From contig NW_004457729.1 of the NCBI RefSeq assembly GCF_000203815.1, forward strand, positions 2,542,674 to 2,606,673: DNA of 64,000 bases, in the 5' to 3' direction. Below the pieces are notes generated by a model. It ran no database searches, was not told the origin of the DNA, and saw only the letters and a list, made by a program, of their open reading frames with translations. The translations under genes and the position numbers were made by a program. This document shows positions 52,020-56,452 of this stretch, one piece after another; positions within the stretch are counted from its first letter, which is position 1; every line of letters starts with the position of its first letter. Source of the stretch: Cavenderia fasciculata (taxonomy: Eukaryota; Evosea; Eumycetozoa; Acytosteliales; Cavenderiaceae).

Positions 52020-55000
52020 TTATCGCCAAACATCATTTTCCAATGGAGTCGATGGTTCTGATTGTGTTGTTCTTCTTCTAACAAGAGGTGAACTGGGATC
52101 CCCATCATCATCCCTAATCGTAGATGTCTTTGATTTCTTTTTCTTTTTTCTTCTCTTTTTCTTTTCATTTCCATTATCATTATTATTATTATTATTATTA
52201 TTATTATTATTATTATTATTATTATTATTATTATTATTATTATTATTATTATTATTATTATTATTATTATTATTATTATTATTATTATTATTATTATTAT
52301 TATTTGTAGCAAGATTTAAATTATTAATATCCATTGGTTGTTGAGGGCCATTTGAACTTGAATTTAAATTTGAATCGGTATCTGAGAATTCTGTTAAAAC
52401 ATGGTCTTGATTTTGGTTGTTATTATTATTTGCATCTCCTCCACCAACAGCAGCTACAACATTTGCATCATTATCATCAGGATGTTTAGTCCGATCCAAA
52501 TAGGAATTATAAAATGTCAAAACTTCCTTATTTTTTTGAATACTATTCTCTTGTTCTTCTATTAGTTTTCGAAGCGATGAAATGATAGCATTCTTTCTCC
52601 ATAAAAAGTTGAATTTTGGTAAGAATATTAAAGTAATGGTTGTAGTAACAAACAGTTCCAAAGCAGCAGATCGAATTAATAGTTCGGCTGTAGGATCTCC
52701 ATTATATGCAAATCCAAGTGGCACTGATACCGCCAAAATAATTACATAGTTGTAGAGTAAGATACCAATATAAACAGCTTCATTAAATGTTCCAGGTACA
52801 TTTCTAAATCTTCTACATACCACTACAAGATAACAACCAAACAATAATTCAATACTCTTTGAAAAGAAATAGGAATAAAATAGTATTAATATATAATCAA
52901 CTAGTCGAGTTTGTTTTGAATATATATATATTTACCATATAAACCAACATGATAATAAATATTATATAATAATCTGGAGATTTACAATAATGTCTAACAT
53001 TTAAGGTATCGAAATCATAATCGTAATAATCATAGACTGGTGTAAATATAAATGTACATATAACAAGTACGACGGGCATGATCATCAATAATGCACCCAA
53101 CTTGAGCAACATCTTGTTGGTTACAATAGTTTCTCGAAGATATTGTACTCCTTCTACCAATCTCCACATTGAAAATTGTTTAACAAATACAGATGTTGCC
53201 ACAACAAATACTGGTATTGGTAAAAATATCATTCTAAATTTACATCTAAAGAAAAATAAAAGTTATTAACTATTAATAAGTATTATTATATATCATTTAC
53301 ATACAAGAAATCAGAAGCATAAAATAATTGAGATAAATTTGAAACCATTGTTAGGATACATCCAACAAGGGTGATGACTAGGAAAAGAGGATTAGAGTAA
53401 CGAATGACTCTTTTCTTTCTAAAGACAATGGTAATGATTAAAAATACGATGCTAATGGTGATCAATACTCCACTTAATATTCCAGTTGTAATTTTAACTG
53501 CCGATGATTCATCCACATATTCTAGACAATAATAAATATAAGATGTAAATACTTTATAACCACTTGGACAATTTGAAAATGTTATATTTTGAATTAATGC
53601 TCCAGCTAAATAAAATAAAATAAAAGAGTCAATTAGTTGCTTTGGTTGGTTTGATATTTTTTTTATAAACTTGTATTTAGGATACATACTTTTAGACGAA
53701 GTTGGAACTGATAGAAAAGTTAAACTACAATTATCTTTTGGTAATGCAGACATGTAGAGATCTGAGATATCAACAAATCCATCTGGATCTAGAATGGATG
53801 AAGTGGTACCTCGAACATAGACATTACTACATGCAACCAAGAAGAAGGCGAGATCTGTTTTACCAACCAATGTATTGTTGAAATAGTCAAATACCTGTAT
53901 CGATATATTGAGTCTTTCAAATGGGAATATGACATATGGCATTGAGACGTTGAAACTATAGTAGCTCGATCTCATGGTTGTATTTCCAAAGGTTTCAGTG
54001 TTGTTGATGGTCGTACAATTGATACAATCAATTATTTGAGTTACATTGTGTAGATAATAGAATAACGATGCGACTTGAAAGGCACGGTTCCCGATAAAAA
54101 CACAGTTTACTACCACTGGTTCACTGTTTAATGGTACATAAAGATTTGATGTCGTTAAAAATATAGCTGGTCCGTATGATGCTGTATTATTTAAAAATGT
54201 ATTATGTGCCAATTTCATTGATCCTGTTTGATCTACTTCAATTGATACTCCTCTCTTTAAACAATAAAATAAATTAGAATTATTAATAATAATAAATTAA
54301 ATATGAATATATGTTGTTATTTGTATACTTACAGTTTTACCTAAATTTTCTTGAAATAAAATATCATCCAATTGAATGATATAATTGTATCTTGCCCAAA
54401 TGGTACCATAGTCACATACATTTTGATAAAATGTACAGTTGAATGCCATAAATAGAGAATTGTAGAATGGCAATACCACACCAGGACCATAATTATTACT
54501 AAAAACACAATTAAAAGCAACAAGAGCCGTTGACAGTTGAAGTGAAATGACACTTTCCGAAACTATATTATTTTTAAAAACAGTTCCTGCTATTACCACC
54601 GATACTTTGTTATTAAATGATAATACATTACTTGTTATATCTAAAAGAAAAAGAAAGAAAAAAAGCATTAATATTATTATTATTATTATTATTATTATTA
54701 CAATGATTATTTTTAAATTTAAATATGTGTACTTTGAAATATTGAATTCATAATGATAATAATTGATAAAGAATTTGATTCGAGTACTGATCCAGTTAAA
54801 TTTTTAAATACACATCCAAGTGTTCTCATTGTACTATAATTGTCATTGATTGATATTTGTGTATTCGATACACCAATCGTATTTTGAAAAAGACTGTAAT
54901 CTATCAACAATGGTAATGATGCATGACTTTCAATAGTTGCTGAATTTGGTGCATCATTTGCATCAAATAAACAAAATAGTATCCTAAAAAACAAGAAGAA

Positions 55001-56452
55001 TTATGATTAGTTTCAAATGATCAGATGTTTGATTTAATATTTACCTAACAGCAGATTCAGATGATACAAATAATGCACCACTTGTATAATTTGCACAATT
55101 TCCTTTGAATATTGATCTTGTAATCGATGTTCTAGAGATATAATAACTTCCTACTGCACCTCCAATATTTGCATAATTTCCTTCAAAATAACATTTATGA
55201 ACTCCAATTTGAAATCCATCTAAAAAATAAATAAATAAATAAAAAGAACTATATATATATATATCATCTCTCTCTCTTTCTTTGTATTTTATATATATTT
55301 ACTTAGATCTAGTGCACCACTTGCAGGTGAAAGATTGTAACCAAAAAGAGAATGAAAAAATCGTACGGTTGATCCAATTCCAAAAAATACACCTCCTTTG
55401 CCATTGTTGGGTGATGCATAATTGGAAACAAAACTACTCTGATGAACTGTACAATTTGAATAATAGATATAAATGGCGCCACCAGTAGTCCCTCTATTCA
55501 ACATAAATAAACTATTATATACATATAAAAACCCTAAATACATTTTAAAATGAATTAATTTTAATCTATCTTTTTTGGTAATTTTTTGTATACTTACCTA
55601 AACTAATATGAAATGATCCACCATCATCAATTGGATTAACATTATTCATAAATACACAATTGTAAATATAGACTTCAGAGACACGTGCCAAAATGGCTGA
55701 AAAGTTACAATTGATAACTTGGATATCTGTCATGATAACTCTTGAAAATGATATTGATGTTAAACTTGCTAAAAATTAATTAATTATAAAAAGGAAGGAA
55801 AGAGAGGATTTAGTAAGGTTGTTGTGATCTTTTTAATAATTAAATAGGAATATATATATATGTATATATTTATATATATTTACTTGAACCTCTTAATTTA
55901 CTAGCATCAAATATGACCGGTGGATCGAGTACTCCACCAGGATCCCTTGATGCATGTCCAATAGAAGTACCAATAATCCATAGATTTAAATTTTGAATGA
56001 GGAAATTAAAATCTCTTGGTTGGTCGTATGTACCAGGACCCATATACACAAAATGATAGGAATGATGGTCTATCTTGTAATCTACCAATTGCGGTGTCGT
56101 ATCAAGAACAGTCCTTAAATATCTACAAGGTGTCTCTCGACTATATCCACAATCTTGATTGGTTGAACCATTCAATGCAACATATCTTATCGTTAATACA
56201 TCATAATGTGGATCTATAGAAAAGTGTAAGTTAATCAATTGACACACCAAAAAATGGAATAATAAGGAGAGAGTACATACATTTAAATGCATGGTCAATC
56301 ATTCCTTCTTCTCCTACATCAAATACACCTTGACCACTGACCATATTTATATTTGAGGTATCATCATCATCATTTCTTCTTCTTGTACTTGTAAACAATA
56401 GTAACAATGAAAATAGTAGAATCAAAAACAATAAATTGATTGCTATTTTCAT
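52020..56452 (-). CDS. Class C (Grl-type) G protein-coupled receptor with beta-helix-like ectodomain
   Basis: Eleven exons: 56281..56452, 55884..56213, 55598..55768, 55303..55533, 55045..55219, 54733..54983, 54333..54640, 53690..54254, 53305..53605, 52936..53245 and 52020..52856; every junction is in phase, 1216 residues. A signal peptide (MKIAINLLFLILLFSLLLLF) opens the protein. The ectodomain (about 22-760) is made of short repeated strands with Asn/Cys ladders, such as VINCNFSAILARVSEVYIYN, GAIYIYYSNCTVHQSSFVSN and LVAFNCVFSNNYGPG, the look of a right-handed parallel beta-helix. From about 765 there are seven membrane helices with class C marks: RYSNPLFLVITLVGCIL, FLCKFRMIFLPIPV, VPGTFNEAVYIGILLYNYVI. 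The cytosolic tail has about 43 Asn in a row. Dictyostelium Grl receptors (GABA-B/glutamate-like) usually carry a periplasmic-binding-type ectodomain, so this ectodomain is unusual. Ligand unknown. Confidence 0.85.
52180..52304. repeat. (ATT)n run coding poly-Asn in the receptor tail
   Basis: More than 40 uninterrupted ATT triplets, the longest simple repeat of the window, read as AAT in the receptor's C-terminal tail. Confidence 0.95.

What the first reader, a model, noticed from the sequence alone, without database searches (positions are those of the whole stretch)
52020..56452. Class C receptor whose ectodomain looks like a parallel beta-helix instead of a Venus-flytrap
The eleven in-phase exons give one protein: signal peptide, about 740 residues of repeated short-strand sequence with Asn and Cys ladders, then a seven-helix domain with class C marks (FNEAVYIG, SNPLFLVITLVG). 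Known animal class C receptors bind ligands with a bilobed domain, and Dictyostelium Grl proteins usually carry a periplasmic-binding-type domain. A pectate-lyase or polymorphic-membrane-protein-like ectodomain would suggest sensing of polysaccharides, bacterial surfaces or cell contacts. The order of exons is seen; the fold and the role are inferred.
Basis: partly seen in the sequence, partly recalled or inferred. Interest (0 to 1): 0.7.

Follow-up and report, generated by a model that had tools for sequence, protein, structure and literature searches.

The report
Beta-helix class C receptor, GrlP/Q/R type
This social-amoeba gene makes a cell-surface receptor whose outer part looks like a stiff coiled rod instead of the usual clam-shaped ligand trap; receptors of this build have been known in Dictyostelium since 2007, so it is another member of a known but little-studied group.

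Summary
Window 52020-56452 (minus strand) gives one 11-exon, 1,216-aa protein with ten GT-AG introns: signal peptide, ectodomain of about 690 residues, class C seven-helix domain (7tm_3, E 5e-36), Asn-rich tail. The ectodomain carries a ladder of about 25-residue coils: chain of 19 against at most 9 in 2,000 shuffles. Pfam Beta_helix matches 1 of 7 stretches scanned (E 4e-8); no bilobed domain matched. AlphaFold2 was uninformative, so the fold rests on sequence.

I group the genome's 7tm_3 matches into seven genes. Two others share the layout and six intron positions on both sides of the junction: it is one gene. The other four carry Bmp or ANF domains.

The architecture is in print: D. discoideum GrlP, Q and R have a Chlamydia-Pmp-like N-terminus (PMC1885808), and about 30% of gut-fungal class C receptors have pectin-lyase/beta-helix ectodomains (PMC5168858). 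Orthology, ligand and mechanism remain untested. Ordinary member of a known, under-studied kind.

The parts
56281..56452 (-). Exon 1: start codon, hydrophobic signal peptide (aa 1-25), acidic linker
55884..56213 (-). Exon 2: N-terminal cap of the ectodomain (YVALNGS..DCG..TPC.......GPGTY), aligned with YISPSG..GC.S..PC.SI.Y in the two paralogues
   Evidence: no Pfam match for this cap; weak, not significant likeness of the PA cap to DUF1565 (E 0.055) and pectate lyase 1ru4 (E 0.34)
55598..55768 (-). Exon 3: first beta-helix coils
55303..55533 (-). Exon 4: beta-helix coils with a Pmp-like GGAI-x13-FVSN repeat (aa 242-262)
55045..55219 (-). Exon 5: beta-helix coils with GGAV-x14-FKGN (aa 321-342), the Pmp core pattern described in PMC11166332
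54733..54983 (-). Exon 6: beta-helix coils
54333..54640 (-). Exon 7: beta-helix coils (aa 444-546); the Pfam Beta_helix match covers aa 475-631 of exons 7 and 8
53690..54254 (-). Exon 8: last coils, then a membrane-proximal module of about 100 residues (about aa 635-735) conserved in both paralogues and without a Pfam match; beta-sandwich guessed by eye
53305..53605 (-). Exon 9: short stalk with a conserved Cys pair (C747, C761), TM1, TM2
52936..53245 (-). Exon 10: TM3, TM4 and first part of TM5, with the TM3-ECL2 Cys pair C836/C922
52020..52856 (-). Exon 11: rest of TM5, TM6, TM7, conserved segment IEEQENSIQKNKEVLTFY (from aa 1037), run of 42 Asn, basic C-terminus, stop

Best explanation
One gene of a dictyostelid (most likely Cavenderia/Dictyostelium fasciculata) encodes a family 3/class C receptor of the GrlP/Q/R type. 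Layout: signal peptide, N-cap, right-handed parallel beta-helix of roughly 16 or more Pmp-like coils, a small membrane-proximal module, a short stalk with two conserved Cys and no nine-Cys domain seen, a GABA-B-like seven-helix domain, a conserved cytoplasmic segment and an Asn-rich tail. Likely working, inferred: the glycosylated beta-helix stands out from the membrane as a stiff rod and binds an extended ligand (a polysaccharide, a bacterial surface or another cell) along its side or through turn loops; binding or load moves the membrane-proximal module and re-arranges the seven-helix domains, probably in a dimer, which then activate a G protein. Shown here: the gene model, the class C domain, the coil ladder and the conserved layout. 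Inferred: fold, surface location, ligand, dimer, G-protein coupling.
For: Gene model. 7tm_3 E 5.3e-36; nearest PDB chains are GABA-B2, E 4e-12; TM3-ECL2 Cys pair kept in 7 of 7 class C genes of this genome (alignment). Beta-helix: Pfam Beta_helix 33.4 bits, above its 25.9 cut-off, on aa 475-631; ladder statistics; the profile of three ectodomains matches the C10 beta-helix protein with score 61 while 22 shuffled or reversed controls reach at most 23.3 and four bilobed domains at most 18. One gene: two paralogues with the same layout; six introns common to all three at the same phase within 4 alignment columns, five in the ectodomain and one in the 7TM; in PA one open 902-bp exon from last coils to the end of TM2. 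The three 7TMs form one group, 100/99. Known relatives: PMC1885808.
Against: Of 7 stretches of this protein scanned against Pfam only 1 met Beta_helix; PA reached E 6e-4, below the cut-off, in 1 of 4 stretches and PB in 0 of 4. The ladder is weak in the paralogues: chain at least as long in 60 of 2,000 shuffles for PA and 7 of 2,000 for PB; with strict F..[ND], 565 and 62 of 2,000. Of three beta-helix proteins of this genome tested by hhalign, C1 scored 29.9, just above the controls, and C19 19.7, within them. AlphaFold2 gave pLDDT 31 and 55 and Foldseek no match at E 0.001 or better. The profile of the three ectodomains met nothing in the PDB. The tree has 7 long-branched rows; 33 of 500 shuffles cluster the label as well. 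No D. discoideum GrlP/Q/R sequence could be compared, so orthology is not shown; and Hall 2023 gives one GrlP per clade and places grlQ/grlR amplification in groups 3 and 4 only, which leaves two of the three beta-helix receptors of this group 1 species unplaced.
Confidence: 0.8

Rival explanations
1. Two neighbouring genes, a secreted beta-helix protein and a seven-helix receptor, wrongly joined.
For: No transcript evidence is available; beta-helix proteins without a 7tm_3 domain exist in this genome.
Against: Two paralogues keep the same layout; six introns are shared by all three across both halves; in PA a single open exon holds the last coils, the membrane-proximal module, TM1 and TM2.
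Confidence: 0.02
2. The ectodomain is a diverged bilobed (Bmp/ANF) ligand-binding domain and not a solenoid.
For: Four of the seven class C genes here have such domains; the fold was not confirmed by prediction.
Against: No Bmp, ANF or Peripla_BP match in the stretches scanned; hhalign to the three Bmp and one ANF domains scores 13.3-18.0, like shuffled controls; the 25-residue ladder runs through about 400 residues.
Confidence: 0.03
3. The beta-helix is an active polysaccharide lyase or hydrolase tethered to a receptor, which cuts its ligand as it senses it.
For: The fold class includes pectate lyases; weak, not significant N-cap likeness of PA to pectate lyase 1ru4 (E 0.34).
Against: No carbohydrate-active family matched in the stretches scanned; the one match over cut-off is the generic Beta_helix model; the ectodomains of the three paralogues share only 24-29% identity.
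Confidence: 0.06
4. The receptor is a contact or adhesion receptor: rods bind like rods on other cells, as Pmp passengers are predicted to stack, and the signal comes from clustering or pulling, not from a soluble ligand.
For: Pmp core pattern GGAV-x14-FKGN (pattern and predicted stacking in PMC11166332, passages); 19 N-glycosylation sequons; beta-helix proteins with what look by eye like one or several membrane segments in the same genome.
Against: No binding data of any kind; Pmp adhesion is a bacterial precedent only.
Confidence: 0.3

Closest known systems
Dictyostelium discoideum GrlP, GrlQ, GrlR (family 3 GPCRs)
   Same: Class C 7TM, long N-terminus without BMP domain, region like Chlamydia polymorphic membrane protein, 1,095-1,604 aa (PMC1885808, passages)
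   Different: Hall 2023 says GrlP has single orthologues in each clade and grlQ/grlR amplified only in groups 3 and 4, so three such receptors in a group 1 species need a tree.
Anaerobic gut-fungal class C GPCRs with pectin-lyase fold/PbH1 ectodomains
   Same: Class C 7TM with an extracellular beta-helix in place of the ANF domain, in about 30% of those receptors (PMC5168858, passages)
   Different: Other kingdom, a few with EGF domains; whether of common or separate origin was not tested
Chlamydia polymorphic membrane proteins (Pmp)
   Same: GGA[ILV]-x(14,18)-FxxN coil pattern of a beta-helical passenger (PMC11166332, passages); one exact instance here
   Different: Bacterial autotransporters with an outer-membrane barrel; no 7TM. 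PF02415 only reached E 0.3-0.5, below its cut-off, in this protein
GABA-B receptor subunit 2
   Same: Closest solved 7TM (E 4e-12)
   Different: Bilobed ligand domain in GABA-B (established knowledge); beta-helix-like ectodomain here

Membership tests
Class C / family 3 GPCR | 7tm_3 domain over its curated cut-off | tested here: met
   125 bits against 33.5, aa 768-1019 (aa 1-1123 scanned)
Class C / family 3 GPCR | TM3-ECL2 cysteine pair (recalled as a class C mark) | tested here: met
   C836 and C922; both columns invariant in 7 of 7 genes
Class C / family 3 GPCR | Bilobed Venus-flytrap ectodomain (usual, not universal) | tested here: not met
   No ANF, Bmp or Peripla_BP match in 7 stretches; hhalign at control level
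Class C / family 3 GPCR | G-protein coupling | not testable with these tools
   needs an assay
GrlP/Q/R subfamily of dictyostelids | Long N-terminus without BMP domain and with Pmp-like region, fused to 7tm_3 | tested here: met
   definition from PMC1885808
GrlP/Q/R subfamily of dictyostelids | 7TM groups with GrlP/Q/R | tested here: inconclusive
   The three beta-helix receptors of this genome group together, 100/99, but no D. discoideum sequence was available
Right-handed parallel beta-helix (pectin-lyase-like) | Repeated coils of about 22-30 residues | tested here: met
   Chain of 19, 0 of 2,000 shuffles; autocorrelation peak at 25 residues, z 3.0; weaker in the paralogues
Right-handed parallel beta-helix (pectin-lyase-like) | Match to a curated beta-helix model | tested here: met
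   PF13229 33.4 bits, cut-off 25.9, in 1 of 7 stretches scanned (misses)
Right-handed parallel beta-helix (pectin-lyase-like) | Solenoid in a confident 3D model | tested here: inconclusive
   pLDDT 31 and 55; strands at about 25-residue spacing in the second model but no structural match at E 0.001
Chlamydia Pmp repeat family (PF02415) | Match to the repeat model over cut-off | tested here: not met
   E 0.31 and 0.49, 11.9 and 11.3 bits, cut-off 20.6
Pectate/pectin lyase enzymes | Match to a catalytic polysaccharide-lyase family | tested here: not met
   none in the stretches of this protein scanned

The most novel reading that the evidence does not exclude
A class C receptor that works without a clamshell: stiff beta-helix rods on one cell stack with, or are pulled by, a surface or a neighbouring cell, and the membrane-proximal module passes that load to GABA-B-like helices. 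The same solution would have arisen separately in dictyostelids and gut fungi, making class C receptors, like adhesion GPCRs, able to read contacts as well as solutes.
Probability: 0.2. Interest if true: 0.7.

Novelty: new member of a known kind. Interest (0 to 1): 0.3.

Why it matters
GrlP is reported to be one of only three family 3 receptors with a single orthologue in every dictyostelid clade (PMC10445921, section 10). Four held papers in the listings show the name GrlP, GrlQ or GrlR; in the passages or sections I read of all four no ligand or mutant of these three is given. A class C receptor without the bilobed domain asks how the seven-helix domain is switched when there is no clamshell to close. 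Three paralogues in one genome with conserved introns give a tractable set for testing this. The finding itself does not change what is known about the architecture.

Tried and rejected
Two separate genes: rejected on shared introns and the joined exon in PA. Diverged bilobed domain: rejected on Pfam and hhalign. My first automatic gene model used a crude base-composition score and differed from the final one in exons 6-7 and 9-11; it was replaced.

Led nowhere: phmmer of the ectodomain against PDB (one match at E 0.29, an unrelated protein); the three-row profile against PDB (none); a scan of bacterial and archaeal genome contigs with the ectodomain alignment (156 stretches matched a pattern, none confirmed), so no prokaryote donor was seen at that sensitivity; Pfam of the membrane-proximal module in the three paralogues (0 of 3); NCBIfam of three stretches (nothing over cut-off); AlphaFold2 on exon 7 + intron + exon 8 (pLDDT 31) and on exon 4 with other coils as rows (pLDDT 55), and Foldseek with the second model (no match at E 0.001). 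In one search pectate lyase, polygalacturonase and P22 tailspike appear among 46 chance-level rows; I give them no weight. Expression in response to bacteria: the passages read in PMC2443395 and PMC7078664 name other Grls (grlB, grlJ, grlE; grlA, G, H, L), not P, Q or R; their supplements were not read. The 3' ends of the automatic models of PA and PB ran into neighbouring genes and were cut back by hand to the in-frame stop; two short gaps in PB were also closed by hand.

Papers: passages only for PMC1885808, PMC5168858, PMC12716839, PMC2443395, PMC7078664, PMC4334915, PMC5282741, PMC11166332, PMC5821085, PMC3261222; abstract, section 10 and passages for PMC10445921, whose figures are not held, so whether its PbH1 label sits on these receptors was not seen. 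Other papers were seen in search listings only.

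Full report
What is there. The minus strand of window 52020-56452 encodes one protein of 1,216 aa in eleven exons. All ten introns are GT-AG and all phases agree. A second model with phase-specific coding statistics and splice-site matrices returned the same exons (it was trained partly on this gene). Hydropathy shows an N-terminal hydrophobic segment (1-25) and, after merging two overlapping segments, seven more between 769 and 1017. 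Pfam on aa 1-1123 finds 7tm_3 at 125 bits, aa 768-1019, and nothing else over cut-off. Against solved structures the seven-helix part is closest to GABA-B receptor subunit 2 (E 4e-12), then mGlu7 and mGlu4.

The ectodomain. I cut aa 168-602 by eye, from the motif list, into 17 stacked segments of 18-33 residues, 15 of them 23-29; all but the first end in a motif of the FxxN kind, [FILVM]xx[ND]. Tested without that choice, the longest chain of [FILVM]xx[ND] with steps of 22-29 residues has 19 members; 2,000 shuffles gave a mean of 3.4 and a maximum of 9. Strict F..N occurs 13 times against 4.9 expected, reached in 1 of 2,000 shuffles, and the residue autocorrelation peaks at 25 residues with z 3.0 among 70 lags. 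One repeat, GGAV-x14-FKGN, fits the core coil pattern that PMC11166332 (passages) gives for Chlamydia Pmp beta-helices; a second, GGAI-x13-FVSN, fits its relaxed gap. Pfam Beta_helix matches aa 475-631 at E 4.3e-8, 33.4 bits, cut-off 25.9, when aa 445-634 are scanned alone. The other six stretches of this protein that I scanned did not match it. The Pmp repeat model itself stayed below its cut-off. In the paralogues the ladder is much weaker: chains of 6 (PA, as long in 60 of 2,000 shuffles) and 8 (PB, 7 of 2,000).

Controls on the fold. The profile of the three ectodomains (A1) aligned by hhalign to a single-exon beta-helix protein of the same genome with score 61 (E 4e-7). Two other beta-helix proteins scored 29.9 and 19.7. 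Three Bmp domains and one ANF domain scored 13.3-18.0. Twenty shuffled and two reversed sequences reached at most 23.3. So one of three beta-helix targets is clearly matched, one marginally and one not. AlphaFold2 was given only sequence read directly from the window, and gave no usable model. The fold is therefore well supported by sequence in this protein and not confirmed by structure.

One gene. Two other class C genes of the genome, PA (L020) and PB (L021), share the layout from signal peptide to a low-complexity tail. Identity to the window protein is 24-25% in the ectodomain and 28-31% in the seven-helix part. The models have 10, 8 and 11 introns; six are common to all three at the same phase within four alignment columns, five in the ectodomain and one inside the seven-helix domain. 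In PA a 902-bp exon, open throughout, runs from the last coils through the membrane-proximal module to the end of TM2. Two wrongly joined genes do not explain this.

Family. The genome has nine 7tm_3 matches (a lower bound by the tool's own note), which I group into seven genes. Four have bilobed ectodomains: Bmp in L023, L024 and L026, and ANF in L025. Three have the beta-helix-like one. A tree of the seven seven-helix domains puts the three together at 100/99; the rows are few and long-branched, the L025 row is incomplete and the root is arbitrary. Hall et al. 2023 count seven family 3 receptors in D. fasciculatum (PMC10445921, table passage). The assembly here, 30,995,898 bases in 21 contigs with window GC near one third, fits that species (31 Mb, 25 supercontigs, 66.2% A+T, group 1; PMC4334915). 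The species name is an inference.

What is known. Prabhu et al. 2007 state that GrlP, Q and R lack the BMP domain and have a region of homology with Chlamydia polymorphic membrane protein (PMC1885808, passages). Hall et al. say that clades 8-11 have no recognised N-terminal domains, yet list PbH1, parallel beta-helix repeats, among their abbreviations (figures not seen). They also give one GrlP orthologue per clade and place the grlQ/grlR amplification in groups 3 and 4 only, so how the three beta-helix receptors of this genome map to GrlP, Q and R is open. Seppala et al. 2016 report pectin-lyase folds and parallel beta-helix repeats in about 30% of gut-fungal class C receptors (PMC5168858, passages). 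The architecture is thus in print for two groups of organisms. I searched for related work; no title in those listings is a functional study of GrlP, Q or R.

How it may work. A beta-helix has no hinge, so the closing of two lobes that switches animal class C receptors cannot be copied directly. The simplest reading is a stiff rod that binds an extended ligand along its face or through its turn loops, followed by a conserved module of about 100 residues without a Pfam match and a short stalk with two conserved Cys. A change of position there would re-arrange the seven helices, perhaps in a dimer; all three paralogues carry a conserved IEEQENxIQKNK-like segment right after TM7, where a dimer contact would be natural. 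Ligand, dimer and coupling are inference.

Verdict. By architecture the gene is an ordinary member of the GrlP/Q/R kind; strict orthology was not testable. Interest rests on the open question of how such receptors are activated.

Noticed in passing
window 29025-29240 (+): U2 spliceosomal RNA gene, Rfam RF00004, 60.9 bits.
   Followed up: no
L034 833-5455 (+) (G000:C1): 1,540-aa open frame: beta-helix (Pfam Beta_helix 62.8 bits), Cys-rich region, then several hydrophobic segments by eye: a beta-helix on another multi-pass anchor.
   Followed up: partly
L022 4589-6280 (-) (G000:C10): 563-aa single-exon beta-helix protein with one hydrophobic segment near the C-terminus; best of the three beta-helix proteins compared with the ectodomain profile.
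   Followed up: partly
L033 751-2739 (-) (G000:C19): 662-aa protein with the strongest Beta_helix match seen (191.5 bits) plus a UBR zinc finger; resembles FBXO11-type proteins (name recalled).
   Followed up: no
window 52020-52856: After TM7 all three beta-helix receptors keep a segment like IEEQENxIQKNKxVLxFY, possibly a short coiled coil; a run of 42 Asn follows in the window protein.
   Followed up: no
window 50202-50711, 51329-51688, 57412-57936, 58014-58565: Open frames near the receptor gene gave no Pfam match at E 0.001 (0 of 4).
   Followed up: no
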